Assembly: GCF_003363015.1 (NCBI RefSeq)
Contig: NZ_QRAP01000002.1
Coordinates: 1-64,000, forward strand
Source: Enterobacillus tribolii
GTDB lineage: Bacteria > Pseudomonadota > Gammaproteobacteria > Enterobacterales > Enterobacteriaceae
Direction: 5' to 3'
Length of the DNA stretch: 64,000 bases
In this document: positions 11,249 through 49,137 of the stretch, in pieces
Numbering within the stretch: the stretch's first letter is position 1
Layout of the letters: each line of letters opens with the position of its first letter
Made by a program: the position numbers and the translations under genes
The notes under the pieces: generated by a model
Told to the model about the DNA's origin: nothing
Databases searched by the model: none
Seen by the model: only the letters and a program-made list of their open reading frames with translations

Positions 11249-11256
11249 TGTATGTT

Positions 11257-23084: not shown

Positions 23085-23372
23085 GTCATCAGCGTTATAT
23101 ACGAAGCGTTTGGCCTGGTCGGTACGGCTATCGATATCAACGATATGCGGGTTGCAGTCACGAAAGGCGTGCGTACCGGTGACTGGAACGACGCTTTCCG
23201 AACAGCGGAAAGGCTGGCTACTTCCGGGCTGGCGTCGGCCGCGGTGGCCTTTGCCGCCCTGACGGCGACGCTGATGGGAATTGTCGGCTATGCGCTGATC
23301 ATGGCATTCACCAGCGCCCTGATTGATGATGCCTTGATGGATCGTATTAATAAGTTTGTAATGAGCCTGTAA
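23085..23372 (+). pseudogene. Remnant of a pore-forming colicin (end of channel domain)
   Basis: The last 90 or so residues resemble the end of a channel-forming colicin domain: a TGDW segment, an Ala/Val/Leu-rich hairpin (two membrane helices, AAVAFAALTATLMGIVGYALIM), then SALIDDALMDRIN as in colicins A, N and Ia. The translocation and receptor domains and the start of the channel domain are absent. An ATG at 23034 would give a 112-residue frame but lacks a ribosome site. It ends one base from the stop of the opposing immunity gene, the usual tail-to-tail layout of pore-forming colicins. Confidence 0.75.
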
Positions 23373-28676: not shown

Positions 28677-28699
28677 GTGTACGTTTGCTGAGGTTATTT

Positions 28700-32713: not shown

Positions 32714-33907
32714 GTGAATCAATGTATTAGCCACGACCCGACGTTACTGTCGCTGCCTTTTTTCACGCCGGGGCACCAACAATATGTGCATGAACTGGAT
32801 CGGTGGTGTCAGCAGCAGTGTGAAACGTTACGGTCACTGCGTGACCGTCCGGTAGCAGAGCAGAGCCGTCAGATGCTGCATCTGTTGGGAAAGGGAGGGT
32901 GGCTTGAGCACCTGAATACGCCCGATCTGCCGGTGCCGAATGATGCGCGCAGAATGTGTTTATCCCGGCAGACGCTGGCCTATTTTGACGATCTGCTTGA
33001 TTTTTCCTGGTCGATTCAATCCCTGAGCGCCAGCGTGATTCAGCGCTACGGCAATGAGGCGCAGCGCAGCGACTATTTACCCGCATTGGCGCGCGGAGAA
33101 CGCATCGCCGCATTCGCGTTGTCTGAATTACAGGCGGGGACAGATATTGCCGCGCTGACGCTGGAGGCACAGCGCTGCGGGGATGGTTGGCGGCTGAATG
33201 GGGAAAAGGCGTGGATTGCCCTGGGAGATATCGCCAGCGACATTATCGTGATCGCCCGTACCGGTGAAGGACCGGGGCCGCTGGGGCTGAGTGCGTTTAT
33301 CGTCGATGCTGCCGGCGGCGGCGTCAGCGCCCGTCCGCTGGACGCTGTTGCTCCCCGGTCGTGGTCGCATCTGCGTTTCGGCAATGTCCGGGTTTCACCG
33401 GAAAACCTGTTGGGGCAACCGGGGCAAGGATTCATCATCGCGCTGGATATTCTCGATCGTTTTCGCATGACGGTCGCCAGCGCCGCGGTCGGGTTTGCCC
33501 GGCGTGCGGCGGATATCGCACTGCGGCATGCCGCGCAGCGCAAAATTTACCGCGGACGTCTGCTGGATCTGCAACTGACCCAGGCCACGCTGGCCAAAAT
33601 GGAAGTTGCGCTTTCCGCTGCTTCCCTGCTGACGGCCAGAGCCGCCTGGCAACACGACGATGGCCGGCCGTTTGCGCGGGAGTCCGCCGCCGCGAAATAT
33701 TTCGCTTGTGAACAAGCCTGCAAAATCGTTGATGATGCGCTGCAGCTTCTCGGGGCTGCGGGCATCGTTGCTGGCAGTCAATTGGAACGGCTGTACCGGC
33801 AAATTCGCCCGTTGCGCATTTATGAAGGCGCATCCGAAGCCTTACTGATGAACATCGCTTCTGCTCTGGATACCCAGCGGGTTATTAACCGGGAGGATTT
33901 ATCGTGA
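32714..33907 (+). CDS. Acyl-CoA dehydrogenase-like flavoenzyme
   Basis: A 397-residue FAD enzyme with the standard acyl-CoA dehydrogenase layout. The flavin-contact strand FALSELQAGTD and the late RIYEGASEALLM, which holds the catalytic Glu, are both clear. GTG 32714 follows AAGGATG. In hydrazine-type pathways such as triacsin's, a dehydrogenase of this kind oxidises the carrier-bound N-N unit. Here it may do the same, or desaturate an amino-acyl thioester. Its stop overlaps the P450 start by four bases. Confidence 0.88.
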   Translation: MNQCISHDPTLLSLPFFTPGHQQYVHELDRWCQQQCETLRSLRDRPVAEQSRQMLHLLGKGGWLEHLNTPDLPVPNDARRMCLSRQTLAYFDDLLDFSWSIQSLSASVIQRYGNEAQRSDYLPALARGERIAAFALSELQAGTDIAALTLEAQRCGDGWRLNGEKAWIALGDIASDIIVIARTGEGPGPLGLSAFIVDAAGGGVSARPLDAVAPRSWSHLRFGNVRVSPENLLGQPGQGFIIALDILDRFRMTVASAAVGFARRAADIALRHAAQRKIYRGRLLDLQLTQATLAKMEVALSAASLLTARAAWQHDDGRPFARESAAAKYFACEQACKIVDDALQLLGAAGIVAGSQLERLYRQIRPLRIYEGASEALLMNIASALDTQRVINREDLS

Positions 33908-35052
33908 GTGATTTACTTAACCCGATCAGCGCGATTCAGCATGACTCGCCCTGGGAATATTACGCCCGCCTGACCCGTGAGACTCCGGTCTATTTTGACA
34001 GCGACCTTAAGCTGTGGGTGGTGAGCGACGCCGCATCGGCGGACGCGGTGCTCAGCAACCCGGTGCTGCAGGTACGCCCGGTGTCGCAGCCTGTCCCTCC
34101 CGGCCTTGTCGGCCAGCCGGCGGGTGATGTCTTCGGCCAGTTGGTGCGTATGCGTGAAGGTGAGTATCAGCAGCAGCTTAAGGCCGTCATTGTCCGCGCG
34201 TTTTCCACGATAGATTCCGCACAGGTGAGCCATTTGGCCCGCCAACTGGCGCAGCAGTCGCTGAGCGACGGCGAGGAGATTAACCGCTGGATGTTTTCCG
34301 TACCGGCGGCCGTGGTTGCGACGCTGTGCGGATTCCTGCCGCGGGATGTGCCGGAGGTTGTGGCGCTTATTGCGGAGTTTGTGTTGTGCATTCCCGCCGC
34401 CGCCGGTCCTGAGCATCAACAGCGTGCCAGCCTTGCGGCCAGGTCGCTGCTGGAGAGATTTTCTGCACAGATCGCGCAGGCGCCCCAGGGTTCTCTGCTG
34501 ACGGAACTGCTGCGATGCGCCGGCGAAGAAGGCTGGTCGCAACGTGCGCCGCTGATTGCGAATGCGATCGGTTTCTTGTCGCAAACCTTTGATGCCACAG
34601 CCAGCCTGGCGGGCAATACGCTGCTGACCGTGCAGCGTTATCCGGATCTCTGGCAGTGCGGACCTGCCGACGCTTTTATAGATGAAACCGCGCGTTACAC
34701 CTCACCAATACAAAATACCCGCCGTTTCGCTGCGCATGAGGTGACGCTGCTCGGCCAGCGGATCGCGCCGGACGACACGATATTGCTGCTGCTGGCGGCA
34801 GCAAACCGCGATCCTGCCCGGTTTGCGCAGCCTGATGTTTTTCAGCCGCAACGCAATACGCAGGCGTATTTCTCTTTCAGCGGCGGCCGTCATCGCTGCC
34901 CGGGCGCCGCGGTTGCCCGCGCTATTACGCACGGTATGGTTTGCGCGCTGGATGCGTACATGCCGGGCTGGCATCAGCGTTTGCATAAGCGTCGTTACTT
35001 ACCTTCAGGTAATGCCCGTATTCCCGAATTCTCACTTTCCGAGATTAACTGA
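33904..35052 (+). CDS. Cytochrome P450
   Basis: A 382-residue soluble P450. The haem-binding FSFSGGRHRCPG gives the axial Cys332, and DETARY carries the ExxR-like region. The I-helix reads SQTFDATAS, somewhat degenerate against the usual AGxDT, so oxygen activation may be atypical. It starts with GTG overlapping the previous stop codon. Bacterial class I P450s of this length need external ferredoxin; none is encoded here. Expected to hydroxylate or otherwise oxidise a carrier-bound intermediate. Confidence 0.9.
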   Translation: MSDLLNPISAIQHDSPWEYYARLTRETPVYFDSDLKLWVVSDAASADAVLSNPVLQVRPVSQPVPPGLVGQPAGDVFGQLVRMREGEYQQQLKAVIVRAFSTIDSAQVSHLARQLAQQSLSDGEEINRWMFSVPAAVVATLCGFLPRDVPEVVALIAEFVLCIPAAAGPEHQQRASLAARSLLERFSAQIAQAPQGSLLTELLRCAGEEGWSQRAPLIANAIGFLSQTFDATASLAGNTLLTVQRYPDLWQCGPADAFIDETARYTSPIQNTRRFAAHEVTLLGQRIAPDDTILLLLAAANRDPARFAQPDVFQPQRNTQAYFSFSGGRHRCPGAAVARAITHGMVCALDAYMPGWHQRLHKRRYLPSGNARIPEFSLSEIN

Positions 35053-35061: not shown

Positions 35062-36384
35062 ATGAATACTAAAACGCCGCTGCCTGACGCTTTTGTTTTA
35101 ACCGGTGCTTTTTGGGTTATTTGCCGTAATTCGCTTTATCTGACACAGCTTGCCGAACGCGGGCTGGCTATTTTGGTTTTAACGCCGGAGAGTTACCGCC
35201 GGCAGGTGGAAGAAGCCCGCAGTAATCCGGACAGCCCCGTCTCGCGGATTACCGATGTGGCGTATGCCGAAGGATCGCTGGACAAAGAGGCGTCATTTAA
35301 CCCCAGTGTTGTTGCCGCCATACAGCAGTGGCGTACACGCTACCGGATTGTGGGCGCTTTTGCGGTGGGAGAGACGCTGGTTGAACCGACCGGCATTATC
35401 GCCGATGCCCTGGGCATCCGTTCTCCGGGGCTGCGCGCCACGCGTACCTGCCGCAGCAAATATCTCCAGCGTTTTTATCTTAACGCGTTCAGTCCGGATT
35501 CAGTGATGGTGCCGCCAGAGCAGCGCCACCGCATCAGCACGGAGGGGCTTGCTTATCCGCTGATCATTAAACCGGCTACCCGTCACTCCTCTTCCGGCGT
35601 CATCAGCGTCGATTCGCCGCAGCAGGCCAGCCGCGCATTAGCGGATTATCCCGCCCATGAAACATTATTGCTGGAACAGAAAATCGCAGGGCAGGAGTAT
35701 TCGGTGGAAACCCTGTCGCAAAACGGCGTGGTGATTTTCGCCTCTGCGACCCATAAGGTGACGACGGACACCCATTCGAACACCTTTGTGGAGCTGGCGC
35801 ATACGGTGCCTAACCCCGATAAAAACAGCGCGCTGCTGCTGGAAGTGACACAAAAGGTTCTGACTGCGCTGGACTTTGGTGACGGCATCGCGCATGCGGA
35901 ATGGCGTGTAGACGCCAGCGGCCGTCCCTGGCTGATGGAAATCGCTTCGCGTACGCCGGGTGACGGTATTTTACCGCTGTATAACCTGGCGTACGGCCAA
36001 CCCCTCGAGCCGGTTATTTTACGCATTATGCTCGGTGAACCGGCCGCTTTGCCCACCCCCGGGCGTATCGCCCGCCAGGTGTATCTGGAGCATACCCCCG
36101 GAATACTGAAAGACGTGCGCATAGACTGGCCGGGAGTGGAGATTGCCTGGCTTAACGATAACGATCCCTGGCCGGTTGTCCCGGCCGGCGGCCAGGATGA
36201 TGAACCCACCCTGCGGGCCGTTTTCATCCATAAGCAACGCGGTGCTCGTCTAGAGCCGCTGCGCTCTTCGGAAGATCGTGCGGTGGTTTTCTTTATTGAT
36301 GCGCGCAGTGCGCAAGAGCTGGATCGGCTGGAAAAACAGGTCAGGGAAAAAATTACGTTACATATTGAGGGATATCATGACTGA
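35062..36384 (+). CDS. ATP-grasp carboxylate-amine ligase
   Basis: A 440-residue ATP-grasp enzyme. The ATP-binding core is seen in YPLIIKPATRHSSSGV (about 160-175), LLLEQKIAGQEYSVET, and AHAEWRVDASGRPWLMEIASR (metal-binding Glu/Asn side). These ligases join an amino acid to another amine through an acyl phosphate. In this operon it could form an amide or hydrazide with the N-N unit. A separate possibility is self-protection by ligating an amino acid onto a toxic product. The start follows GAGG. Confidence 0.85.
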   Translation: MNTKTPLPDAFVLTGAFWVICRNSLYLTQLAERGLAILVLTPESYRRQVEEARSNPDSPVSRITDVAYAEGSLDKEASFNPSVVAAIQQWRTRYRIVGAFAVGETLVEPTGIIADALGIRSPGLRATRTCRSKYLQRFYLNAFSPDSVMVPPEQRHRISTEGLAYPLIIKPATRHSSSGVISVDSPQQASRALADYPAHETLLLEQKIAGQEYSVETLSQNGVVIFASATHKVTTDTHSNTFVELAHTVPNPDKNSALLLEVTQKVLTALDFGDGIAHAEWRVDASGRPWLMEIASRTPGDGILPLYNLAYGQPLEPVILRIMLGEPAALPTPGRIARQVYLEHTPGILKDVRIDWPGVEIAWLNDNDPWPVVPAGGQDDEPTLRAVFIHKQRGARLEPLRSSEDRAVVFFIDARSAQELDRLEKQVREKITLHIEGYHD

Positions 36385-37645
36385 TTCATCGTCCGCACCG
36401 GGCGTACTGGAAACATTTTCGCAAAGCCCGCTGTCATCAAAAGTTGTCTTGCTCGGCGTGATGATCAACCGGTTGTCCGGGTTTCTGCAAATCTTCATCG
36501 TGCTGTATCTGGTGTCGCTCGGCTATTCGCATCAGCAAACCATCATTGCGCTGGCGGTGTACGGCACTGGCGCCGTTATTGGCGCACTGCTCGGCGGCGC
36601 GATCAGCGAACGTTTCGGGCCGCGTCTTGCCAGCATGGTCAGCATGGGGGCGACCGCGGTGCTGACGGCGGCGTTGCTCTACCTTGACCATTTTATTTCC
36701 ATCCTGATTGTCGTGGCGCTGGCCAGCCTGTGTGCCCAATTGTTCCGCCCGGCCTCTGCCGCCTTGCTGTCCTGGCAAACGCCGCCGGAGCGGCAAACGA
36801 TGATTTTTGCCATTTACCGCCTGGGCCTGAACCTTGGGGCGACGGGAGCGCCGCTCATCGGTTATGCCCTTTATCACTGGGGCGGGGAGAGCTTTACGCT
36901 GCTGTTCTGGGGAGAGGCGATTATTGCGGCGCTGTACGCCGTACTGGCGATGCTGACCCTGCCGGGGAAAAACGACGTCGGGGAAATCAGTACGCGGGCC
37001 GGAGCGGATAAAACGGTCGCGGGCGGCTACCTTGACGTGCTGGCTGACCGGCGTTTCGTCTTATTTTTACTGGCGACCTTCTGCCATTCCGCGGTTTACG
37101 TGCAATACATCACCACGCTTCCTCTCTACGTTGAAGACAAAGGGATTGCGCTGTTCTGGTACACCCTGGCGGTATCGCTCAACGGTATAATTGTTATCTG
37201 CTTTGAGCTGTTCATCACCAAGTTCACCCAGGGATACAACAAACGTTATGTACTGGCGTTCGGTTTTGCGCTGATTGGCGCAGGCGTTGCCTTTTATGCC
37301 GTTCCTATCGGCCCTGCGGCGCTGATTGTCGGCACACTGATTTGGTCGTTGGGGGAAATCATCTCCGGCCCTTCCTTTTTTGCTTTTCCGGCGAACGCCG
37401 GCCCGGGTCACCTGAAGTCCCACTATCTGGGCAGTTTTCACTTTATGTTCAGTCTGGGGATCGCGCTGGGGCCGGTTATCGGCGGTTGGCTTTATCTTTC
37501 GCTGGATACGGCCTTCTGGCCCGTCATTGCGTTGGGCTCCATCTTCGCGGCCCTGGTTTGCGGGGCGTGCGTCAAAGAACCCGCCCCGGCGCCGTTGAAA
37601 ACAGAGGCCGGTACGTCAATGACGTCCAGTGAGGCTATCGAGTAG
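36377..37645 (+). CDS. MFS transporter
   Basis: A 422-residue inner-membrane protein with twelve hydrophobic helices. It has the helix 2-3 loop of the major facilitator family (LLGGAISERFGPRLAS). ATG 36377 sits within the end of the ATP-grasp gene and has GAGGG upstream. It is the only transporter of the operon and is the natural candidate to export the product, giving the producer protection. Confidence 0.9.
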   Translation: MTDSSSAPGVLETFSQSPLSSKVVLLGVMINRLSGFLQIFIVLYLVSLGYSHQQTIIALAVYGTGAVIGALLGGAISERFGPRLASMVSMGATAVLTAALLYLDHFISILIVVALASLCAQLFRPASAALLSWQTPPERQTMIFAIYRLGLNLGATGAPLIGYALYHWGGESFTLLFWGEAIIAALYAVLAMLTLPGKNDVGEISTRAGADKTVAGGYLDVLADRRFVLFLLATFCHSAVYVQYITTLPLYVEDKGIALFWYTLAVSLNGIIVICFELFITKFTQGYNKRYVLAFGFALIGAGVAFYAVPIGPAALIVGTLIWSLGEIISGPSFFAFPANAGPGHLKSHYLGSFHFMFSLGIALGPVIGGWLYLSLDTAFWPVIALGSIFAALVCGACVKEPAPAPLKTEAGTSMTSSEAIE

Positions 37646-37704: not shown

Positions 37705-39060
37705 ATGAAACAGGCATTAAACGGCGCACCTTCTCATTATACCCTGCTGGGTATCGGGGCAGGACCGGCAAATCTGAGTCTGGCCTCGTTGTTACATGAT
37801 AAGCCAGAAATCAGTAATCTTTTTCTTGACCAGAAAGCCGCCTTTTCCTGGCACGACGATCAGATGATCGATGGCGCTACGCTGCAGGTGTCACTGTTTA
37901 AGGATCTGAGTACGCTGACCGATCCGACCAATAAATTTACCTTTATGTCTTATCTGCATGAGAAGGGGCGCATCTACCACTTTCTTAATGCACAGTTTGA
38001 TGAGATCCCGCGCCGTGAGTTTCGCAATTACATGGCCTGGGCGGCGGAGAAAAACCGCAATGTATCATTCGGCGAACGTGTGTTACACATTGATTTTGAT
38101 GGTGTATTTCGTATTGAAACCGACAAGCGCCAACTCACCGCCGATCATCTTGCCGTTGGCGTAGGCACCAAGCCCTGGGTGCCGGAATTTGCGGCGCCGT
38201 TGCTTGATAATTCGCAGTTCCACGTCAGTCAGTATATGAAGAAAAACCATAATACCGCGGGGAAACAGGTGGTTATTATCGGTGGTGGTCAGTCAGGGGC
38301 TGAGGTGTTTCTCGATCTGTCGTCGAAACCGGCAAGTGAGCGACCGGAGCGCATTACCTGGTTGTCGCGGCGGCGTAATTTTTTCCCAATCGATGATTCG
38401 ACGTTCACCAACGATTTTTATATGCCCTGCTATTCTGAATATTTCAGTAAATTGCCTTTGCACCTGCGTCAAAAAACCAACCGTGAGAATATATTAACGT
38501 CTGACGGTATTTCCGAGTCAACGTTACGGGCAATTTATCAGAAGCTTTATTGCCTCCGGTTTATTACGCCGGGTGAACTTGAGTTTGATTTAATGACCAG
38601 CCGTTCGGTAAGCAATGTGGTACAAACATCATCAGGGCGCTGGCGGGTTGATTATAAACATCTGGATGTTGAACAGGCAGAACATATAGAGGCTGATGTT
38701 ATTATCTGGGCGACCGGTTATGCGCCGGCGGAAAAAAACTTTCTGGATGGTCTGAAAGATCGGATTCATTATGAAAATGACGAATTCGTTATTGATGATG
38801 ATTTTGCGATCGTATGGGATGGCCCCCGCCAAAATAATATCTTCGTGCAAAACGCGGTACGCGGCCAGCGCGGGCTGCCGGACGTCAACCTGAGCCTGAA
38901 TGCATGGCGGGCGCAGCGCATAATGGGGCGGCTGTGCGGAGAGTATCCGCGCCAGCAAATATCTTCATTTATTGACTGGTCGCCCGGCGTTGATAATAAC
39001 GGCGCGCATAAGATTAAGGATGACGTTATGCCGGAGAAGAAAATCATTACGGCGCGTTAA
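37705..39060 (+). CDS. L-lysine N6-monooxygenase (hydrazine pathway)
   Basis: A 451-residue flavin-dependent N-hydroxylase of the IucD/SidA family. The FAD site GIGAGPANLS (from residue 16), the NADPH site GGGQSGAE (near 195) and the late ATGY motif are all there. It hydroxylates the side-chain amine of lysine (or ornithine). Directly followed by the DAO-like oxidase and the cupin-MetRS protein, it completes the same three-gene set as in s56-p1 (Spb38-40) and triacsin, so lysine is the expected substrate. No siderophore genes accompany it. Confidence 0.88.
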   Translation: MKQALNGAPSHYTLLGIGAGPANLSLASLLHDKPEISNLFLDQKAAFSWHDDQMIDGATLQVSLFKDLSTLTDPTNKFTFMSYLHEKGRIYHFLNAQFDEIPRREFRNYMAWAAEKNRNVSFGERVLHIDFDGVFRIETDKRQLTADHLAVGVGTKPWVPEFAAPLLDNSQFHVSQYMKKNHNTAGKQVVIIGGGQSGAEVFLDLSSKPASERPERITWLSRRRNFFPIDDSTFTNDFYMPCYSEYFSKLPLHLRQKTNRENILTSDGISESTLRAIYQKLYCLRFITPGELEFDLMTSRSVSNVVQTSSGRWRVDYKHLDVEQAEHIEADVIIWATGYAPAEKNFLDGLKDRIHYENDEFVIDDDFAIVWDGPRQNNIFVQNAVRGQRGLPDVNLSLNAWRAQRIMGRLCGEYPRQQISSFIDWSPGVDNNGAHKIKDDVMPEKKIITAR

Positions 39061-39091
39061 ATATCATATTCCAATACAGTCTTAAAATATC

Positions 39092-40132
39092 ATGATGAAT
39101 AAAAACGATATTGCTATTATCGGCGGTGGTATTATTGGCGCCGTTATTGCCCGTGAGGTGATAAAACAATATCCGCAGGCAAGTGTTTCACTTATCGAGA
39201 GACAGTTGTGCGGTGCCGGAAGTTCATTTTATTCCGCAGGCGTTCATTTCCCCCGGGGCATAAGTGAACGCGTGCGGGAAATGTCCCGCCACAGCCATGA
39301 TTATTATCAACCGTTTGTGGATGACGGGGCGCCTTTCTATTTTTTACCCATGGAGCTGGTGACCGGAAAAGCGCATTGGGAAGAGACGTGCAGTAATTAC
39401 CTTCCCACTGCCGGGTTTGTGCTGTCGGAAAGCATGAATCCCCTGATTTATCTTTCTGAGGATGGCGGACAGGTCGTGCTGCGGGGAAAGGGTGCGCATT
39501 ATGCCGATGTGTTTGCCCTGATCCAAAAATGGCTGCCGGTGCTGCGCTCGTCTGTTGCGGTACGTGAGGGACTGCGGGTGACGGCACTGCATCCCCGCCC
39601 TGGTGGCTATGACATAGCGCTCAGCGACGACACGGTTCAGGCGGCCAGTCAGGTGATCCTGGCGCCGGGCCCCTGGCTGGCTGAGCCGGCCTGGCGCGAG
39701 CGTATCGCCGGGCTGGGCATCCGGGTAAAAAAAATTGTTGCCGTCCATATTGCCAGCAAACCAGAGCCCGGCGCGCCCCTGACGATTTTCCATGATGAAG
39801 ATGCTTTTCTGGTGCCGTGCCACAGCCGCGGGCATTGGTTGTTCAGCTATACCTGCCAGGAGTGGGATGTCCTGCCGGGGGAGACCGGGCCTCTGCAAGC
39901 CCGTGATTTGGCGGCAGCCCGGGAATTATTGCGCCGCTACGCGCCGGCGCTCGCCGGGGAAATCAGGGACGGCCGGGTTTTCTGTGATGCTTACAGTCCG
40001 TCGCGGGAGCCGGTCATCACCCGCCTGGATGAACACCTTATCTTTGCCGGTGGCGCTAACGGCTCCGGTTACCGGCTGGCACCCGCTATTGCCGCCGATG
40101 TTATTCACCTTTTAACGCAAACCGCTTTCTGA
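39092..40132 (+). CDS. DAO-family FAD-dependent oxidoreductase (hydrazine pathway)
   Basis: A 346-residue oxidase of the D-amino acid/glycine oxidase family. A dinucleotide motif IIGGGIIGAVIARE starts at residue 9, and the C-terminal end has FAGGANGSGYRLAPAIA, the second FAD contact. In known hydrazinoacetate pathways an enzyme of this kind oxidatively splits N6-(carboxymethylamino)lysine into hydrazinoacetate and aminoadipate semialdehyde. The same step is the best proposal here. The ribosome site is weak. Confidence 0.85.
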   Translation: MMNKNDIAIIGGGIIGAVIAREVIKQYPQASVSLIERQLCGAGSSFYSAGVHFPRGISERVREMSRHSHDYYQPFVDDGAPFYFLPMELVTGKAHWEETCSNYLPTAGFVLSESMNPLIYLSEDGGQVVLRGKGAHYADVFALIQKWLPVLRSSVAVREGLRVTALHPRPGGYDIALSDDTVQAASQVILAPGPWLAEPAWRERIAGLGIRVKKIVAVHIASKPEPGAPLTIFHDEDAFLVPCHSRGHWLFSYTCQEWDVLPGETGPLQARDLAAARELLRRYAPALAGEIRDGRVFCDAYSPSREPVITRLDEHLIFAGGANGSGYRLAPAIAADVIHLLTQTAF

Positions 40133-40144
40133 GGATGCCCGGAT

Positions 40145-42409
40145 ATGATCATTCATCGCTATGATGCCACACGTATGTCAAAGCAGTTCGGTATTGATAT
40201 CAGCAGTATTGATGGCATGGATTTTCCTGCCGGCTGGGGCCGGGTCAGGCCCGGAGAGCGTTCGGACAGTCATCAGCATGATGAAACCGAAATGTTCGTG
40301 ATCATCGCGGGAGAAGGGGTGTTGATCGTGGATGGTCACCGCTATCCGGTGACGGCGGGCTGTGCGGCGCAGTTTGCGCCCTTTGAGTCGCACGTGCTGG
40401 AAAATACGGGAGATAAAGACATTCTCTTTTTCCTCCAGTACCGCCGCGACGCTGACAGCGCCCGGCGTTCCGCCTCTTCACAGGAGCGGCAGGATCCCCG
40501 GCGCCCGCAATTCGTTTTTTCCACGCCGCCGACGCCAAACGGCGATTTGCATCTCGGCCATTTGTCGGGCCCGTATCTGGGGGCCGATGTTTATGTCCGT
40601 TATCAGCGGATGATTGGCAACCCGGCATGGCACATGACCGGCTCCGATGATTATCAAAGCTATGTCGTCGCACTGGCTGAACGTGAAAACACGACGCCCG
40701 CCGCCGCCGCGCAGCATTTTTCCCGCGAGATTTTGCAGACGCTGAAAATGATGGATATCGAGCCGGATCATTACACGGTGACCAATGATGCGCCCGGTTA
40801 TGCTCAGGGCGCACAGCGCTTTTTCAGCCGTACACTGGGCGAAGATAAGGTGATTTTTGCCGAGAGCGCCGCCCTGCGTGACGCGCAGAATGGTAAATAT
40901 CTTTATGAAGTTGACGTTTCCGGCCAGTGTCCCGGTTGCGGCGGCGCGACCAACGGCAACATCTGCGAAGAGTGCGGAGAACCCAACGTGGTCACGGATA
41001 TGGCACAGCCGTTATCCAAGCGCTCCCAGCTTCCGCCTGAACATACCCGGGTAGCCCGTTATCTTCTGCCGTTGCACCGTTTTGAACAACAGATCGCTGA
41101 GCATCACAAAGTCGGCCGGGTTCCCGCCCGCATGCGTGAGCTGGCTCACCGGGTCTTTTCCCGCCCTGAATTCACCGTACCGGTGTCTCACCCATCCGAA
41201 TGGGGGATCGCACCGGCAGAAGCTGAAGGCGAGGGGCAGGTTATTTGGGTATGGCCGGAAATGAGTTATGGCTTCCTGTACGACATCGAGCAACTGGGTA
41301 AAAAAATCAATCGTCCCTGGTCGGCAGATGAACCCGGTAAAGACTGGAAAATTGTGCATTTCTTTGGTTACGACAACAGTTTCTATCACAGCATCCTTTA
41401 TCCGGCGCTGTATCACCTGGCTTACCCGGAATGGCAGCCGGACATTGATTATCACTACAACGAATTTTATCTGCTCGATGGCAAAAAGTTTTCGACCAGC
41501 CGCCGCCATGCCGTGTGGGGGAAAGAAATCCTGGCACCGCAGAGCGTGGATGCGGTGCGCTTTTACCTGTGCCTGACGCGCCCTGAGCAGGAGAGAACCA
41601 ACTTCCGTCTGGCGCAATGGGAAGAGGAAGTGCGTGACACCCTGCTCGGCGAATGGCAGGACTGGCTGCACGATCTGGGTGAGCGGGTCAGTACGGCCTA
41701 CCAGGGAAATGCGCCGGATGCCGGTATCTGGACCAAAGAACACGTCGCCTTTTGGGCGCGGTTGAACGGGTTGCTGCAGGCGATCACCGATGCGTTGAAC
41801 CCCGACGGGTTTTCGTTGCGCAGCGCTGCCCGTCACCTGAAAACGCTGGTCACTGAAACGCGCGCTTTTTCCCGCAGTCAGCAGCAACTGGCGGGTATCG
41901 CACAATGGCGTGATGAATACCGTACCGCCGTGGCGCTGGAGCTCGCGGCCGCAAATCTGCTCTCCGCCGTTGCCCAACCGTTGATGCCGCGCTTCTCTGC
42001 CCGCCTGGCGGCGGCGCTCGGAAATGAGACCGCACAGTCATGGCCGCAGCAGGCTCAGTTGGTGACGCCGGGTAACCGCATTACGTTGCAGGAAACGCCT
42101 TTTTTCTGTGATCCACAAGCATGTGATCCACAAGAATGTGTTCCTCAGGAACCAGCCGGTCAGGAACAACCTAGTGACGTCCATTGGCAGTGGCTTGAGG
42201 AAAAACTGGGCGTTCTGCTGCCTGAAACCCGTCTGCACCCGACACATGTTTTATCTCAGCTGGGGGCGACCTCGCTGATGACCGTGACGCTGCAATATCA
42301 GTTACTTCATGAATACCAGGTCGATGTTCCGCTGGAAACTCTGCTGAATCAGCCGTTGGGGGAAATCGCCGGTCATATTGCACGCCAACAGCAGGGGGCT
42401 ACGGCATGA
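40145..42409 (+). CDS. Cupin-MetRS-like hydrazine-forming enzyme fused to a carrier protein
   Basis: A 754-residue three-part protein. Residues 30-100 are a cupin with metal ligands His43, His45, Glu49 and His83. Residues 120-650 are a class I aminoacyl-tRNA synthetase-like ligase of MetRS type: HLGH at 136-139, a zinc knuckle (Cys262, 265, 274, 277) and KKFSTSR at 447-453 for KMSKS. Cupin-MetRS fusions (Spb40 type) join N6-hydroxylysine to glycine with ATP and rearrange it to an N-N bond. A third part, residues 675-754, is a carrier domain with GATSL, attachment Ser710. From memory the known relatives end after the MetRS part, so this carrier is unusual. The stop overlaps the NRPS start. Confidence 0.9.
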   Translation: MIIHRYDATRMSKQFGIDISSIDGMDFPAGWGRVRPGERSDSHQHDETEMFVIIAGEGVLIVDGHRYPVTAGCAAQFAPFESHVLENTGDKDILFFLQYRRDADSARRSASSQERQDPRRPQFVFSTPPTPNGDLHLGHLSGPYLGADVYVRYQRMIGNPAWHMTGSDDYQSYVVALAERENTTPAAAAQHFSREILQTLKMMDIEPDHYTVTNDAPGYAQGAQRFFSRTLGEDKVIFAESAALRDAQNGKYLYEVDVSGQCPGCGGATNGNICEECGEPNVVTDMAQPLSKRSQLPPEHTRVARYLLPLHRFEQQIAEHHKVGRVPARMRELAHRVFSRPEFTVPVSHPSEWGIAPAEAEGEGQVIWVWPEMSYGFLYDIEQLGKKINRPWSADEPGKDWKIVHFFGYDNSFYHSILYPALYHLAYPEWQPDIDYHYNEFYLLDGKKFSTSRRHAVWGKEILAPQSVDAVRFYLCLTRPEQERTNFRLAQWEEEVRDTLLGEWQDWLHDLGERVSTAYQGNAPDAGIWTKEHVAFWARLNGLLQAITDALNPDGFSLRSAARHLKTLVTETRAFSRSQQQLAGIAQWRDEYRTAVALELAAANLLSAVAQPLMPRFSARLAAALGNETAQSWPQQAQLVTPGNRITLQETPFFCDPQACDPQECVPQEPAGQEQPSDVHWQWLEEKLGVLLPETRLHPTHVLSQLGATSLMTVTLQYQLLHEYQVDVPLETLLNQPLGEIAGHIARQQQGATA
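42107..42151 (+). repeat. Three tandem 15-base repeats in the ligase-carrier linker
   Basis: TGTGATCCACAAGCA, then TGTGATCCACAAGAA, then a diverged third copy, in frame, encoding CDPQA-CDPQE-CVPQE. It lies exactly in the linker between the MetRS-like and carrier domains, which suggests slippage expansion of a flexible hinge and possibly a recent fusion. Confidence 0.8.
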
Positions 42410-45400
42410 GTATCAGCACGTTACTTGATCGAATCACCGGTGCCGGGCTGAGGATCAGCAGGCAGGGTGATAACCTGAAGCTGGAAGGTCTGACGAACGC
42501 GATTCCGCCGCAACTGGTAGCGGATATCCGTACGAACAAGGCGCAACTGCTCGCCTGGCTGGAAGAGAGCCAGGATACGTTTCCGCTGACTCCGCTGCAG
42601 CAGGCATATTACCGTGGCCGTGATTTGGTCACGGAAGGCGGGGGCGTGGCCAACCAGGTTTACCATGAGATCGAAGGCGTCTGGGACATTGAGCGGCTGG
42701 AGCAGGCATTGCAGCGTGTGGCGCAGGAGCATTCGGCGCTTCGCCTGCGGATAAGTGGTGATGATGCGCAGTATGAAAGCAGCGAACTGCCCCGTATCGC
42801 CCGCCGTGACTGGCAGGGGTTCAGCGACGGGGAGCAGCGTCAGATGCGTGCCCGGCTGCGTGAGGAGAAGTCTCATCAGATACTGTCACCGCAGGGTTCA
42901 CTGCTGCAGGCAGAAGTGGTGATCCTTTCACCGGAAAGCATGGTGTTGTATGTCAATCATGACGGCATGATTGTGGACGGCATCAGTATGTTTTTACTGT
43001 TCCGGCTCTGGCACCAGCATTATCAAACGCCGCAGCCGCAGGCTGAATATCTGTCGTTCCGCCAGCACATCGCTGCCCGCGAGCAGGATAAACAGCACGC
43101 CGTCAGCGATCGTTCGCGGGATTACTGGCTGCGGCGTCTGGAATCATTGCCGAAAGCGCCTGCATTGGCGCAAAACCCCCGTCCTGCCACCGGGGCGCCC
43201 CGCTTCCGGCAGCATCTTGTCACTCTGGATGCGGCCCGCTGGCAGCAGTTACAACAGCAGACCAAAGCGCAGCAACTGACGCCTGCAGCCGTGCTGATGG
43301 CAGCCTGGGCGGAAACGCTGTACGTCTGGGGGGCCGGGGAGGATTTCACGCTTAACGTGACGATCTCTGAACGTCGCCCGATTCACCCCCGGGCCTTCAG
43401 CACCATCGGGCCGTTTTCTGTTCCGATGCTGACCGAGATTCATCTTGATCACCAGCATCCGTTTATTCAGCGCGCCCGGCGTTTGCAAGCGCAATTGCAT
43501 CAGGATATCGATCACCGCTATTTTTCCGGCATTGACGTTATGCGAGAACTGGCGAAAACGCGCGGGCTGGCAGATGCGCGGATGCCGTACACGTTTAATT
43601 GCACGCTGGGCGCGTTGGAAGGGGTGAACGGCGATGCGCTGACGCTACTTGGCCGCGAGGTTTATACGCTGAGTCAGACGCCTCAGGTACTGCTGGACGT
43701 TTTTCTGTTTGAGCAGCAGGGGCAACTGGTCATCCGGCTGGACGGTGTGGAGTCGGCGTTTCCCGAAGGCTTCCTGGCCGCGATGGCGGAAGGTTTTGAG
43801 CGTATGCTGCTTTCGCTTTGTCAGCCGGAAAGCTGGCAGCGGGCAGTGTTTGATTTGCTTCCTGCCGCACAACGTCAACGACGGGAACAAATCAATGCGA
43901 CTGAGGCGGAAATCCCGTCCGAACTGCTCGGCGATGCCTTCGTAATTCAGGCCCGCAGAAATCCGGATGCCGCGGCGATTTGTACGATGGCGCGGCAGAT
44001 CGGTTACGGAGAGTTGTTGAACCGCGTCGCAGAAGCTGCGCAGTGGTTGCACGGTCAGGGGGTAAAGCGTAATGAACTGGTTGGCCTCATTGCGACCCGC
44101 GGGCCAGAGCAGATTATCGGCATTCTGGCCATTGTGCTGTCCGGCGCGTGTTATCTGCCCATTGACGCCGGTCTGCCTGAAGCCCGTCGCTGCTATATGT
44201 TGCAGGATGGCGGCGTTAGGGTAGTACTGACCAACGTTGACGCCGCCGCACCGCTGCCTTGCTTTGATTTGCGAACGCCCGCGGAGGAAATCTTCGCGTT
44301 GCCCGTGCGCGATGTTGCCGCAACGCAGGATGATCTCGCTTACGTGTTGTATACCTCCGGCACGACCGGCGATCCCAAAGGCGTGATGGTGACGCATCGC
44401 AACGTAGTGAACCTGATCGCCGACTGCCAGCGGCGTTTCAGCGTGCGTCCGGAAGATCGTTTCTTCGCCATCAGCGCTTTCAACTTTGATCTGTCCGTCT
44501 GGGACATTTTTGGTGCGCTGTCAGCCGGTGCTGCGTTGGTAATGCCAGATGCAGATCGGGCTGCTGATACCCAACATTGGGCGGAGCTCTGCCGGATGCA
44601 CCAGGTCACTATCTGGAACTCGGTACCCGCCATTGTACGAATGATGTTTGACTATCAGCCCGGGCTGGTGGACAGCCTGCGTCTCATTATGATGAGTGGC
44701 GATCGTATTCCGCCAGATTTGCCGGCGGCCATGATGGAACGCCGTCCCGATATCGCGTACTGGTCATTGGGTGGGCCGACGGAAACGACCATCTGGAACA
44801 TTTGCCATCCGATTTCGCCTGAGGACTGCAACGGAGAAAACATTCCTTATGGCCGCCCTAATGCCAACAACCAATGTTCGGTACGCAACGCACAGGGAGG
44901 TGAATGCCCCGATTGGGTGGCCGGTGAAATCTATGCTGCCGGCGCTGGGATTACCCGGGGTTACTGGAATGACGAAGTCAGAACCCACGAGCGATATCCC
45001 GTTGATGCTCATGATAGACAACGTTATTTCCGCACCGGCGATCTGGGACGCTATTTGCCCGATGGCGACATCGACATCCTTGGCCGGGTGGATTTGCAGA
45101 TAAAAATTAACGGATACCGCATCGAGGCCGGGGAAGTCGAGAACGTGCTTACAACCCTGCCTGAGATTGCCCAGGCCGCGGTGGTTGCAGCCAAAGATGC
45201 GCAGGGCGATGTGCTGGTGGCGCACCTGGTGGCAGACGGTTCCCGGCCGGCACTGGCCGAACTGCGTCAACGCGTCGCACATTTGTTGCCGGATTACATG
45301 ATCCCTGCGCACCTGGTATGGCATGAAGCCCTTCCCCTGAACCGCAATCAGAAAGTCGATCGCAAGGCGCTGTCCCAGTTTCCCCTGCTCGCCGACGTGC

Positions 45401-45660
45401 CGGGAGACAGCGGATCCCGGCAGGCCAATGGCGACATCGAACGTCAGTTGCAGACGCTGTGGCAGGATATTTTGGCCCGCGACAATATCGGGATGGAGCA
45501 AGACTTTTTCAGCCTGGGGGGCAACTCCCTCAAAGCCCTGCGTATTTTAACGTCGGTGCGTAAGGCGTTTGGCGTGGCGATGCCGCTGGAATCCGTTTAC
45601 CAGTTTAATACCGTTCAGGCGATGGCGGGCCAAATCGCGGATCGCGGAGGAAAACTATGA
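42406..45660 (+). CDS. NRPS, TubC docking-Cy-A-PCP, cysteine-like specificity
   Basis: A 1084-residue single-module NRPS. Residues 1-55 resemble the TubC-type docking domain. A cyclization-type condensation domain follows, with DxxxxDxxS at Asp186-Asp191-Ser194 (NHDGMIVDGIS). The A domain shows YTSGTTGDPKG, SLGGPTETTIW, YFRTGD and NGYRIEAGE. Its specificity pocket, read by eye, is D-L-W-N-M-S-L-I-W-K, one change from the cysteine code DLYNMSLIWK. The PCP has Ser1041 (GGNSL). The protein stops there, with no TE or further C domain. It should attach an upstream acyl group to cysteine and close a thiazoline ring. Its start overlaps the carrier-bearing cupin-MetRS gene. Confidence 0.92.
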   Translation: MSISTLLDRITGAGLRISRQGDNLKLEGLTNAIPPQLVADIRTNKAQLLAWLEESQDTFPLTPLQQAYYRGRDLVTEGGGVANQVYHEIEGVWDIERLEQALQRVAQEHSALRLRISGDDAQYESSELPRIARRDWQGFSDGEQRQMRARLREEKSHQILSPQGSLLQAEVVILSPESMVLYVNHDGMIVDGISMFLLFRLWHQHYQTPQPQAEYLSFRQHIAAREQDKQHAVSDRSRDYWLRRLESLPKAPALAQNPRPATGAPRFRQHLVTLDAARWQQLQQQTKAQQLTPAAVLMAAWAETLYVWGAGEDFTLNVTISERRPIHPRAFSTIGPFSVPMLTEIHLDHQHPFIQRARRLQAQLHQDIDHRYFSGIDVMRELAKTRGLADARMPYTFNCTLGALEGVNGDALTLLGREVYTLSQTPQVLLDVFLFEQQGQLVIRLDGVESAFPEGFLAAMAEGFERMLLSLCQPESWQRAVFDLLPAAQRQRREQINATEAEIPSELLGDAFVIQARRNPDAAAICTMARQIGYGELLNRVAEAAQWLHGQGVKRNELVGLIATRGPEQIIGILAIVLSGACYLPIDAGLPEARRCYMLQDGGVRVVLTNVDAAAPLPCFDLRTPAEEIFALPVRDVAATQDDLAYVLYTSGTTGDPKGVMVTHRNVVNLIADCQRRFSVRPEDRFFAISAFNFDLSVWDIFGALSAGAALVMPDADRAADTQHWAELCRMHQVTIWNSVPAIVRMMFDYQPGLVDSLRLIMMSGDRIPPDLPAAMMERRPDIAYWSLGGPTETTIWNICHPISPEDCNGENIPYGRPNANNQCSVRNAQGGECPDWVAGEIYAAGAGITRGYWNDEVRTHERYPVDAHDRQRYFRTGDLGRYLPDGDIDILGRVDLQIKINGYRIEAGEVENVLTTLPEIAQAAVVAAKDAQGDVLVAHLVADGSRPALAELRQRVAHLLPDYMIPAHLVWHEALPLNRNQKVDRKALSQFPLLADVPGDSGSRQANGDIERQLQTLWQDILARDNIGMEQDFFSLGGNSLKALRILTSVRKAFGVAMPLESVYQFNTVQAMAGQIADRGGKL

Positions 45661-47174
45661 CGTTCTCCATCATAAATGAGATTGTTAACCGGCCGCCGGC
45701 GTCGGGTGGCAACCTGTACATCTCAACCCTGAGCGAACAAAAAACGATTTCGTTACGTGCGCTGTACCGTATGGCAGGACAGGTTGCCAACGGCTTGCTG
45801 GCACAAGGCATCACTGCCGGTGATACCATCGGTATCCTGGCGGATAACCGGCTCGAATGGGTATTGCTCGACCTGGCTGCACTGCGCCTTAAGGTGCGTA
45901 CGGCAGGGTTTGATCCCGGCAAGTTCACCGCTGCGCCGTCGCTGGTGAAAAATTACCGGCTCAAGTGTCTGTTTACTGATAAAAATGTCGCCACTGCGCA
46001 TCCGGCAATCTGTGATATCAACACCATCAGCGCATTTCCCGATGTTTATCCTGAAGACTTGCCCGCTGTTAGCTATGCGGCAGACGAGACAACCACCATC
46101 AAGTTTACTTCCGGTTCCACGGGCGTGCCGAAGGGGCTGGCGGCGACGGTCGGCAGTATCGACGCATCGTTGCGCGGCGTTCAGCGTCTGTTCGCTCATG
46201 GCCCGGATGACAGCCTTTTCGTCTTTTTGCCGTTATCGCTACTACAACAGCGATACTGGATCTATTCGGCGCTGAAATACGGTCATGACATTGTCCTGAG
46301 TAATTACCAATCAGCATTCGTTTTCATGGCGCAGCGGCAGCCGACCGTAGTGATGGGCGTGCCCGCGTTTTTTGAAACCGCGCGTCAGCATATTATCCGC
46401 CAGGGGGGCGACGACGCAGCAATGAAAGCCCATGCCCGCGCGCTGTTTGGTGAGCGAATCCGTTATTTATGGACAGGGTCCGCGCCTGCCGATGCTGCAA
46501 CGCTCGACTTCTACCCGCGCATGGGGCTGCCGATTTATGAAGGGTACGGCATGAATGAAACGTGTATCGTCACGAAAAACCATCCTGGCGCCTTTCGGCC
46601 AGGCAGCGTCGGGCAGGTGATCGAAGGGAAAAAGGTGGTGATCGATGAAAACGGCAATGTTGTCGTCTACAGTGATTATCCGGTCAACACCCGCTATCTC
46701 TACGCTCAGGAGGGGGCTTCGGAGAAAATCTTTACGCCTGATGGGGGAGTACGTACCGGCGATATCGGATTTATCGACGAAGACGGTTTTTTGTATATCA
46801 AAGGCCGCTCGGACAACGTAATTGTCCTGGATAACGGCAAAAAAATCGACGTACAGCCCATTGAAGCCCGACTGCGTAATGCGGAGGTTATTGCGGAGTG
46901 CGTCATCTTCAGCCCGCAACAAACCGATCTGGTCGCCGTCGTTTCACCGGCGTCCGTCCCCGCCGATATTCCGGCGATTCATGCCGCACTGGAAAGCGTT
47001 AACGCGGTGACAGAAAAGGATGAGTTTATCAGCCGTCTTGTGATTGCCGGACAGCCGTTCAGCATCGATAACGGCCTGCTGACTTCTCAGTATAAACCCA
47101 TCCGCAAGGCGATATTCGAACGTTATCAACATGAACTGAATACTACTGTTAAGGAGAGTCTCTATGTCCGTTAA
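45657..47174 (+). CDS. AMP-dependent acid ligase (probable acyl-ACP ligase)
   Basis: A 505-residue adenylate-forming enzyme with KFTSGSTGVPKG (phosphate loop), YEGYGMNE and RTGDIGFIDEDG. It lacks the extended C-terminal insertions of long-chain fatty acyl-CoA synthetases. Its start overlaps the NRPS stop, and the next gene encodes a small free ACP, so it probably activates a carboxylic acid and loads it on that ACP. In triacsin biosynthesis a ligase/ACP pair handles the hydrazinoacetate derivative; the same is inferred here. Confidence 0.85.
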   Translation: MTFSIINEIVNRPPASGGNLYISTLSEQKTISLRALYRMAGQVANGLLAQGITAGDTIGILADNRLEWVLLDLAALRLKVRTAGFDPGKFTAAPSLVKNYRLKCLFTDKNVATAHPAICDINTISAFPDVYPEDLPAVSYAADETTTIKFTSGSTGVPKGLAATVGSIDASLRGVQRLFAHGPDDSLFVFLPLSLLQQRYWIYSALKYGHDIVLSNYQSAFVFMAQRQPTVVMGVPAFFETARQHIIRQGGDDAAMKAHARALFGERIRYLWTGSAPADAATLDFYPRMGLPIYEGYGMNETCIVTKNHPGAFRPGSVGQVIEGKKVVIDENGNVVVYSDYPVNTRYLYAQEGASEKIFTPDGGVRTGDIGFIDEDGFLYIKGRSDNVIVLDNGKKIDVQPIEARLRNAEVIAECVIFSPQQTDLVAVVSPASVPADIPAIHAALESVNAVTEKDEFISRLVIAGQPFSIDNGLLTSQYKPIRKAIFERYQHELNTTVKESLYVR

Positions 47175-47448
47175 TCTGGAAAGCATCGCCCGACAAAAAC
47201 TCGCCGCCGTGCTGACCTCTCCGGCAGAGATCGGGCAACTGGACGCCGGCGCCAACATGCGCGATGCGTATGGCCTGACGTCGCTGAATAAAATCTTATT
47301 CATCACGTCGTTGTGTCAGGAAGCGGGGATCAACCTTGCCGGACTGACGGAGGACGATCTGGCGCATATGAACACTCTGGGCGATGTTATCCGTATTCTG
47401 GCGCCGCTCGCTGATGCACCGGCGGCAAGTCACCAGCAGGGAGCATAA
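47164..47448 (+). CDS. Free acyl carrier protein
   Basis: A 94-residue carrier protein; the attachment Ser is in AYGLTSLNKIL (Ser42), replacing the common DSL. It has four-helix carrier character and a loose Ala/Gln tail. A strong AAGGAG lies before the ATG, which is inside the end of the ligase gene, so the two are coupled. It should carry the acid activated by that ligase for oxidation or acylation by neighbouring enzymes. Confidence 0.85.
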   Translation: MSVNLESIARQKLAAVLTSPAEIGQLDAGANMRDAYGLTSLNKILFITSLCQEAGINLAGLTEDDLAHMNTLGDVIRILAPLADAPAASHQQGA

Positions 47449-47450: not shown

Positions 47451-48065
47451 ATGAACTGGCAAACGACGGCGTCAGCAACGCTGGAAAACGAGCACGTCAT
47501 GCTGCGTCCCGTCCGTGAGGACGATCGGGAGAGCATTCGCGCCCTGGCGCGCGACAGTCATATCTGGCGCTATTTTGTTTTTCGCGTCAGCAGCGAGGAG
47601 GAGTTTGAGAACTTCTTCAATGCGATGCTCAGCGATCAGGCTACGGGAACGCGCGCCGTATTTATCGTGGTGGACAAAGCCAGCGGACAGATCGCCGGCA
47701 GTATGAGCTTCGGTAACATGGTGGAAAAAGAAGCCCGGCTGGAAATCGGCTGGTCCTGGCTCGGCGAGGCGTTTCGCGGCAAAGGGATTAATCGTTGGGC
47801 TAAATATCTGCTGATGCGTCATGCGTTTGAAGTGCTCGGCGTATTACGGGTGGAATTCAAAACGGATGTGCTCAATCTTCAGGCCAGAGCCGGGCTGCGT
47901 AATATCGGGGCAAAAGAGGAGGGCGTACTGCGCAGCTTCAACTTTATGCCGGATGGCCGGCGTCGTGATGCTGTCTTCTATAGCGTCCTTGCTGATGAAT
48001 GGCCGCAGGTGAGTCATTCGTTACAGCACAATGCGAAAGTCAGTCACCGGCCGGAGGTGCAATGA
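47451..48065 (+). CDS. GNAT-family N-acyltransferase
   Basis: A 204-residue acetyltransferase of the RimJ/RimL type. Typical features: LENEHVMLRPVREDD at the start, EIGWSWLGEAFRGKGIN (acetyl-CoA pyrophosphate loop with RGKGIN), and a C-terminal GRRRDAVFYSVL. It would acylate an amine with an acyl-CoA; in hydrazine pathways a GNAT caps the free hydrazine, so the N-N nitrogen is the likely target here. The stop overlaps the next gene's start. Confidence 0.85.
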   Translation: MNWQTTASATLENEHVMLRPVREDDRESIRALARDSHIWRYFVFRVSSEEEFENFFNAMLSDQATGTRAVFIVVDKASGQIAGSMSFGNMVEKEARLEIGWSWLGEAFRGKGINRWAKYLLMRHAFEVLGVLRVEFKTDVLNLQARAGLRNIGAKEEGVLRSFNFMPDGRRRDAVFYSVLADEWPQVSHSLQHNAKVSHRPEVQ

Positions 48066-49114: not shown

Positions 49115-49137
49115 TCAATGCTATTGAGGGCAAGCCT

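What the first reader, a model, noticed from the sequence alone, without database searches (positions are those of the whole stretch)
37705..42409. Complete hydrazine-forming gene set whose ligase is fused to a carrier protein
Seen: a lysine N-hydroxylase, a DAO-like oxidase and a cupin-MetRS protein in order, with all key motifs intact (cupin His/Glu, HLGH, four-Cys zinc site, KFSTS). Known: this trio makes N6-(carboxymethylamino)lysine and hydrazinoacetate in actinomycete pathways (s56-p1, triacsin, pyrazofurin/formycin). New here: the setting is an enterobacterium, and the ligase ends in a carrier domain (Ser710). Inference: the N-N product, or a derivative, may be held on this carrier and passed straight to the NRPS.
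Basis: partly seen in the sequence, partly recalled or inferred. Interest (0 to 1): 0.95.

Follow-up and report, generated by a model that had tools for sequence, protein, structure and literature searches.

The report
Azaserine-type gene cluster in an enterobacterium
An enterobacterium carries 16 of the 21 genes of the cluster with which Streptomyces makes the diazo antibiotic azaserine, on a 25-kilobase stretch that also sits at a different place in a bacterium of another genus, so it is predicted to make azaserine or a close relative; the fused carrier domain that looked new is already known from azaserine makers.

Summary
The three genes are real and intact, but they are azsL-azsM-azsN of a 17-gene run (27789-49617): 16 homologues of the Streptomyces fragilis azaserine genes in the published order (azsA, azsH, azsI, azsR, azsU not seen in the run) plus osmC. 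The cupin-MetRS-carrier fusion is not new: it is AzsN/AzaE/NngM, and in vitro the AzsN carrier receives the oxidised hydrazone from AzsQ through AzsD and gives it to the NRPS AzsO. The window's AzsO has the DxxxxD and Asn marks of AzsO and the same A-domain code as the serine-loading S. fragilis enzyme. Prediction: azaserine or a close relative. Erwinia, Lonsdalea, Xenorhabdus and Pseudomonas hold related clusters; Serratia and Photorhabdus hold the fused protein. A block at 89.5% DNA identity sits at another place in an enterobacterium of another genus, so the cluster looks mobile. On the open question which enzyme turns hydrazone into diazo: AzsE (heme-oxygenase-like) occurs in 35 of 37 searched genomes, the P450 AzsG in 30, never without AzsE; published in vitro tests of both saw no activity. 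AzsE's model has two heme-oxygenase-like folds, the second nearest to N-oxygenases. New member of a known kind.

The parts
24310..25206 (+). LysR-type regulator; left end of the block shared with G051
   Evidence: Pfam; block start 24304; a LysR gene (38%) also lies beside the Pseudomonas cluster L006
25210..25926 (-). TauE/SafE-type exporter, inside the shared block
   Evidence: Pfam
26201..27379 (+). SfnB-like acyl-CoA-dehydrogenase-fold flavoenzyme, inside the shared block
   Evidence: NCBIfam TIGR04022 over cut-off; 59% homologue after Pseudomonas azsT (L006), 46% homologue before Bradyrhizobium azsL (L052)
27789..28676 (+). azsB: thioesterase, predicted to release the product (first ATG at 27894)
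   Evidence: Pfam Thioesterase E 4.8e-30; azsB; starts
28685..29566 (+). azsC: isocitrate-lyase/PEP-mutase family, predicted succinate supply
   Evidence: Pfam PEP_mutase; azsC
29560..30492 (+). azsD: KAS III-like acyltransferase, predicted to move the hydrazone from AzsQ to the AzsN carrier
   Evidence: Pfam ACP_syn_III; AzsD
30492..32681 (+). azsE: two heme-oxygenase-like folds in the model; candidate hydrazone-to-diazo oxidase
   Evidence: Pfam Haem_oxygenas_2; E558, H568, E629, H657, D661, H667 invariant in 16 of 16; model and fold matches; 35 of 37 genomes
32714..33907 (+). azsF: acyl-CoA-dehydrogenase-like, predicted hydrazine-to-hydrazone oxidation on AzsQ
   Evidence: Pfam; AzsF assay
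33904..35052 (+). azsG: cytochrome P450 with Cys332, role unknown
   Evidence: Pfam p450; Cys332 in at least 95% of 28 aligned; 30 of 37 genomes
35062..36384 (+). azsJ: ATP-grasp ligase with a LAL_C2 match (24.1 bits, under its cut-off of 29.4)
   Evidence: Pfam; beside azs together with azsK in 19 of 37 genomes
36278..37645 (+). azsK: MFS transporter (ATG at 36377 just before the azsJ stop is the likelier start)
   Evidence: Pfam MFS_1; starts
37705..39060 (+). azsL: lysine N6-hydroxylase (predicted)
39092..40132 (+). azsM: DAO-like FAD oxidase, predicted to free hydrazinoacetate
40145..42409 (+). azsN: cupin-MetRS hydrazine synthetase (predicted) with C-terminal carrier (Ser710)
42406..45660 (+). 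azsO: NRPS Cy-A-CP, predicted ester bond to serine; D186/D191, N398, D431, code DLWNMGLIW, carrier Ser1041
45657..47174 (+). azsP: AMP-dependent ligase, predicted to load succinyl-hydrazinoacetate on AzsQ
47164..47448 (+). azsQ: free-standing carrier protein (94 aa)
   Evidence: 46% over 0.8 of its length to the S. fragilis locus, 88% to G051
47451..48065 (+). azsS: GNAT, predicted succinylation of hydrazinoacetate
47999..49114 (+). azsT: C45-family hydrolase, predicted desuccinylation
   Evidence: NCBIfam C45_proenzyme over cut-off
49138..49617 (+). OsmC-family protein; also after azsT in Erwinia psidii, Xenorhabdus and G388, not found after azsT in Lonsdalea L004; match to G051 stops inside it

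Best explanation
The three genes are azsL-azsM-azsN of a cluster (27789-49617) whose gene order and domains match the azaserine cluster of Streptomyces fragilis, so the cluster likely makes azaserine (O-diazoacetyl-L-serine) or a close relative. Predicted working, by homology with published work on azs and related enzymes: AzsL hydroxylates lysine N6; the cupin-MetRS part of AzsN joins it to glycine with an N-N bond; AzsM frees hydrazinoacetate; AzsS succinylates it; AzsP loads it on AzsQ; AzsT removes the succinyl group; AzsF oxidises it to the hydrazone; AzsD moves the hydrazone from AzsQ to the carrier at the end of AzsN; the Cy domain of AzsO esterifies it to the side-chain hydroxyl of serine held on AzsO; AzsB releases it. 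The last oxidation, hydrazone to diazo, is unassigned in the literature; I infer that AzsE does it, not the P450 AzsG. The cluster with a LysR regulator, a TauE exporter and an SfnB-like enzyme would be a transferable island. Shown here: sequences, order, motifs, distribution, shared block. Inferred: every reaction in this organism, the product, and the transfer.
For: Order B-C-D-E-F-G-J-K-L-M-N-O-P-Q-S-T as in the azs table. Homologues of azsF to azsT in that order in the S. fragilis locus L012; in Glycomyces harbinensis L041 azsE to azsT in that order, with the thioesterase after azsT; both species are named azaserine producers in PMC10445470. AzsO: DxxxxD in 39 of 39, Asn for the heterocyclisation Thr in 38 of 39; code DLWNMGLIW identical to S. 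fragilis AzsO, which loads serine in vitro. Carrier fusion followed by azsO in 36 of 36 fused loci. Best Foldseek match of AzsN is the hydrazine synthetase PyrN. Best window match to the S. noursei ORF taken as NngS is azsG at 23%, which argues against N-nitroglycine. AzsE in 35 of 37 genomes; AzsG in 30 of 37, never without AzsE; five have AzsE without AzsG. Island: an alignment of 24,919 columns at 89.5% identity to G051; within the 60 kb of G051 compared, the only other match outside it is a 263-column patch at 72%; dbpA, next to osmC in the window, lies 1.4 Mb from the cluster in G051.
Against: No chemistry from this organism. azsA, azsH, azsI, azsR and azsU are not in the run (not searched for elsewhere, except PPTases: one lies about 16 kb upstream and three more in the genome). 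AzsO keeps Asp431 where S. fragilis has Asn447 (9 of 39 have Asp), and N447D abolished ester formation in the S. fragilis enzyme, so the Cy reaction could differ. Shikai et al. tried the putative oxidoreductases on the hydrazone-serine in vitro and saw no oxidation. antiSMASH predicted cysteine for S. fragilis AzsO. AzsJ could alter the product.
Confidence: 0.8

Rival explanations
1. The product is an azaserine dipeptide or amide: the ATP-grasp ligase AzsJ joins azaserine to an amino acid and AzsK exports it, which would also protect the maker.
For: [quoted passage not shown] Beside azs, azsJ and azsK occur together in 19 of 37 genomes, one alone in none. The two genes overlap or nearly so.
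Against: S. fragilis and G. harbinensis have both genes and are reported to make azaserine. On the tree only 5 well-supported independent pairs differ in azsJ; azsK goes the same way in 4 and does not differ in 1, p 0.125. Away from azs, G036 has a 56% azsJ homologue without azsK, G009 a second copy at 52%, and G014 and G025 have 43% azsK homologues without azsJ. PMC10445470 doubts that AzsJ takes part, as some clusters lack it.
Confidence: 0.2
2. The P450 AzsG, not AzsE, makes the diazo group, and AzsE does another step.
For: Shikai et al. name AzsG as an example of the likely last oxidase, with AzsE as the other candidate. The window keeps both, with the haem Cys in place.
Against: AzsG is missing from five genomes that keep azsN, azsO and azsE, and no P450 is annotated within 16 kb in the Sinorhizobium plasmid cluster (PLSDB gene tables are incomplete); three loci have azsE without azsO or azsG inside the stored stretch (L046, L050, L065); PMC13274452 reports, second-hand, that the P450 gene nngJ is not needed for N-nitroglycine while the HDO nngH is.
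Confidence: 0.25
3. The cluster makes a different hydrazine or hydrazone product (for instance N-nitroglycine, a thrazarine-like analogue, or a free hydrazone), not azaserine.
For: Shared early pathway with N-nitroglycine; Asp431 variant in AzsO; extra SfnB-like and OsmC genes.
Against: No NngS-like P450; A-domain code identical to the serine-loading enzyme; azsE and azsG both kept.
Confidence: 0.15
4. One reading: a new fusion that holds its own N-N product and passes it straight to the NRPS.
For: Fusion and NRPS neighbour are real.
Against: The fusion is published; azsM, S, P, Q, T, F and D are all present, which in azaserine act between the two roles of AzsN.
Confidence: 0.03

Closest known systems
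Azaserine cluster azs of Streptomyces fragilis (aza of Glycomyces harbinensis)
   Same: Gene order, domain make-up, carrier fused to AzsN, Cy-A-CP AzsO with the Asn414-type mark and identical A-domain code, AzsE, AzsG, AzsJ, AzsK
   Different: Host is an enterobacterium; no azsA/H/I/R/U in the run; LysR, TauE, SfnB-like and OsmC genes beside it; Asp instead of Asn at the second Cy position; proteins 41-68% identical to S. fragilis where locus L012 covers them
N-nitroglycine cluster nng of Streptomyces noursei (L038)
   Same: HAA set, carrier-fused NngM, NRPS, HDO and one P450
   Different: nng has a further P450 and a hydrolase; the window's best match to the ORF taken as NngS is azsG at 23%
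Triacsin and s56-p1 hydrazinoacetate genes (Tri26-31, Spb38-40)
   Same: Lysine hydroxylase, oxidase, cupin-MetRS; Tri29/30/31/22 steps
   Different: No fused carrier and other downstream assembly
dob cluster of Nocardia ninae (4-diazo-3-oxobutanoic acid)
   Same: Hydrazone on a carrier, later N-oxidation to diazo
   Different: Uses a ferritin-like oxidase (Dob3) and a PKS; in 63 loci azsE is seen in 24 and a homologue of the ORF taken as Dob3 in 3, never both

Membership tests
Azaserine (azs/aza) biosynthetic cluster | HAA set azsL, azsM, azsN adjacent and intact | tested here: met
Azaserine (azs/aza) biosynthetic cluster | Carrier domain on AzsN, gene just upstream of azsO | tested here: met
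   azsN and azsO overlap by 4 bases
Azaserine (azs/aza) biosynthetic cluster | Hydrazone-forming genes azsS, azsP, azsQ, azsT, azsF | tested here: met
Azaserine (azs/aza) biosynthetic cluster | AzsO Cy domain with DxxxxD and Asn for Thr (N414) | tested here: met
   D186, D191, N398
Azaserine (azs/aza) biosynthetic cluster | Second Cy substitution (N447) | tested here: not met
   Asp431. The paper says Asp is kept in some homologues, 9 of 39 here, so I do not treat it as defining
Azaserine (azs/aza) biosynthetic cluster | Serine-loading A domain | tested here: inconclusive
   code identical to S. fragilis AzsO, which loads serine; positions placed from recalled core motifs; activity not testable
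Azaserine (azs/aza) biosynthetic cluster | AzsB, AzsD, AzsE, AzsG | tested here: met
Azaserine (azs/aza) biosynthetic cluster | Production of azaserine | not testable with these tools
   needs LC-MS
Hydrazine synthetase (cupin-MetRS, Spb40/PyrN type) | Cupin His/Glu, HLGH, four-Cys site, KFSTS and PyrN-like fold | tested here: met
Hydrazine synthetase (cupin-MetRS, Spb40/PyrN type) | N-N bond formation activity | not testable with these tools
   needs assay
N-nitroglycine (nng) cluster | Second P450 (NngS) | tested here: not met
   best window match to the L038 ORF taken as NngS is azsG at 23%; which ORF is nngS was inferred from gene order
Heme-oxygenase-like diiron oxidase/oxygenase (AzsE) | 3 His / 3 carboxylate ligand set and HO-like fold | tested here: met

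The most novel reading that the evidence does not exclude
Azaserine-type diazo chemistry has moved into Enterobacterales as a mobile island, and AzsE, a protein with two heme-oxygenase-like folds, is the missing enzyme that oxidises the hydrazone to the diazo group, while the P450 AzsG is dispensable.
Probability: 0.45. Interest if true: 0.7.

Novelty: new member of a known kind. Interest (0 to 1): 0.45.

Why it matters
The hydrazone oxidase of azaserine biosynthesis is stated to be unidentified (PMC13061610). A cluster with all the proposed core genes in a Gram-negative host, plus a presence/absence pattern that favours AzsE over AzsG, makes that step testable by two gene deletions. It also suggests that enterobacteria such as Erwinia, Lonsdalea and Xenorhabdus (plant- or insect-associated, from general knowledge) may make a glutamine antagonist (recalled) known so far from actinomycetes.

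Tried and rejected
Rejected: (1) a new kind of fusion: published as AzsN. (2) Phosphonate chemistry from the Pfam PEP_mutase hit: the protein scores 41.4 bits against a cut-off of 319.55 for NCBIfam's PEP mutase and sits where azsC, an isocitrate lyase, sits. (3) Solanimycin: partial hits to SolG and SolI far under their cut-offs. (4) N-nitroglycine: no second P450. (5) A single origin of the carrier fusion: the label needs 9 changes on the cupin-MetRS tree, at least 5 on well-supported branches; a quick tree with several long branches, so I do not claim repeated fusion. (6) att-like repeats: no 12 bases shared between 22500-24500 and 48900-50300, direct or inverted. (7) E. coli genomes: no match to 24304-49200 at megablast sensitivity. 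(8) An empty site: not defined, since the G051 DNA next to dbpA matches another contig of the window's genome.

Led nowhere: naming the host. Xenorhabdus: one contig starts inside azsL, the other about 300 bases before azsM, and azsE, F, G, J and K were not found in the two drafts at the thresholds used; loss and assembly gap cannot be told apart. PDB sequence search with AzsE: no match up to E 1.

Print: that I found no paper on an enterobacterial azaserine cluster rests in open-licence PMC only; one search listed 25 of 3,725 papers. PMC10445470 speaks of about 50 clusters and PMC13061610 of Actinobacteria and Proteobacteria; their supplements, which may name such hosts, were not seen. Van Cura et al. 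2023 (PMC10330308) is not held: nothing read.
Full report
WHAT IS THERE. The three ORFs are present at the stated coordinates and intact. They lie in a run of same-strand genes from 27789 to 49617, overlapping or with gaps of up to 59 bases. In order: thioesterase, isocitrate-lyase/PEP-mutase family, KAS III-like, iron-containing redox enzyme, acyl-CoA dehydrogenase, P450, ATP-grasp, MFS, lysine hydroxylase, DAO-like oxidase, cupin-MetRS-carrier, condensation-adenylation-carrier NRPS, AMP-ligase, a 94-aa carrier, GNAT, C45 hydrolase, OsmC. That is azsB-C-D-E-F-G-J-K-L-M-N-O-P-Q-S-T of the azaserine cluster of Streptomyces fragilis (PMC10445470, table read), 16 of its 21 genes. azsH and azsI are not between azsG and azsJ here (9-base gap), and azsA, azsR and azsU are not in the run. 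In locus L012 (S. fragilis) azsF to azsT stand in that order; in L014 (Streptomyces sp. CT34) azsB to azsG do.

THE FUSION IS KNOWN. PMC10445470 (outline, section 5 and part 1 of section 13 read) describes AzsN as cupin/tRNA ligase/carrier and shows in vitro that AzsD transfers the hydrazone from AzsQ to the AzsN carrier and that AzsO takes it from there and not from AzsQ. The review PMC11705231 (passages) and the N-nitroglycine paper PMC13274452 (passages and section 15) also describe the fused carrier. In a scan of genome contigs 97 stretches encode a relative; the best 80 loci were returned. Of 75 loci with enough of the protein, 36 have the carrier; all 36 are followed by an azsO homologue; of 38 loci with azsO, L052 and L077 lack a recognisable carrier.

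TESTS OF THE AZASERINE READING. AzsO of the window has the DxxxxD pair (D186, D191), Asn398 at the position of N414 (38 of 39 aligned have Asn), and Asp431 at the position of N447 (30 Asn, 9 Asp). Its A-domain positions read DLWNMGLIW, as in S. fragilis and G. harbinensis and 22 of 39 in all; I placed the positions from recalled core motifs, and the same columns were compared in all rows. S. fragilis AzsO loads serine in vitro. N447D abolished activity in S. fragilis, a point against simple equivalence, although natural homologues with Asp exist.

WHERE ELSE. Named enterobacterial relatives: Erwinia psidii, E. mallotivora (contig ends inside azsN), Lonsdalea britannica, Xenorhabdus yunnanensis and X. 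indica; AzsN-like proteins of Serratia sp. NPDC078593, S. marcescens and Photorhabdus luminescens, whose clusters I did not look at; also Pseudomonas sp. S30. Of 392 genomes drawn from the window's own family, the own one, G051 and G388 have AzsN at 71% identity or more; two others match at 34-36% only. On the cupin-MetRS tree the window pairs with G051; in the drawn tree (which has one bad row, L082) it groups with Xenorhabdus, Erwinia, Lonsdalea and G388, and this group with Pseudomonas L006; one search has well-supported sets of 7 and 8 rows that fit this, their members not printed.

AN ISLAND. Window 24304-49200 aligns to G051 in one stretch of 24,919 columns at 89.5% identity. In the 60 kb of G051 around its cluster, matches over 150 columns besides this are a second TauE gene and a 263-column patch at 72%. 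The left edge is at the LysR start codon, the right edge inside osmC; two ORFs next to it in G051 read like transposases (my reading, no family search). dbpA, next door in the window, is 83% identical in DNA and lies 1.4 Mb from the cluster in G051. So the same block sits at two sites in two genera, and is more alike than dbpA. Direction and means of transfer are unknown.

azsJ AND azsK. Beside azs both are found in 19 of 37 genomes and neither in 18, two of these being the cut Xenorhabdus contigs; never one alone beside azs, though homologues stand alone elsewhere in G036 (azsJ, 56%), G014 and G025 (azsK, 43%). On the tree this rests on few independent changes (p 0.125). The pair may form a tailoring-and-export unit.

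VERDICT. Observation confirmed, novelty claim not; a new member of a known kind in a less studied host group, useful for testing the missing oxidation.

Noticed in passing
window 7946-12058 (and perhaps 16-7449): Two acyltransferase genes, one FabD-type, and a PPTase: they look like the end of a trans-AT polyketide cluster; the 2477-aa ORF at 16-7449 was not scanned.
   Followed up: partly
L105 (Sinorhizobium meliloti plasmid pSmeSM11b) 394-29572: An azs-like set on a plasmid typed as conjugative, with two further NRPS genes and an MbtH gene and no annotated azsG, azsJ or azsK; the hydrazone-serine may be built into a larger peptide. 23 plasmid records hold a relative of AzsN, all under 60% identity, 4 Pantoea and 1 Klebsiella among them.
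   Followed up: partly
window 26201-27379; L006:19321-20454; L052:6461-7558: An SfnB-like flavoenzyme stands beside azs genes in the window, in Pseudomonas and in Bradyrhizobium; its role is unknown.
   Followed up: no
window 49138-49617; L003, L001, L002, L097: OsmC-family gene directly after azsT in several enterobacteria; possible self-protection, untested.
   Followed up: partly
L046, L050, L065: Hydrazone-forming clusters with azsE but no azsO NRPS and no azsG in the stored stretch: perhaps other diazo products.
   Followed up: no
L001, L002: Xenorhabdus contigs hold only azsL/M to azsT plus osmC; azsE, F, G, J, K not found in the drafts.
   Followed up: partly
P0014: Pseudomonas coronafaciens has a close cupin-MetRS (64%, 671 aa) that ends without a carrier.
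   Followed up: no
window 55844-57040: HNH-endonuclease-domain protein of 398 aa with weak partial hits to IscB and to a phosphorothioate-dependent restriction enzyme.
   Followed up: no
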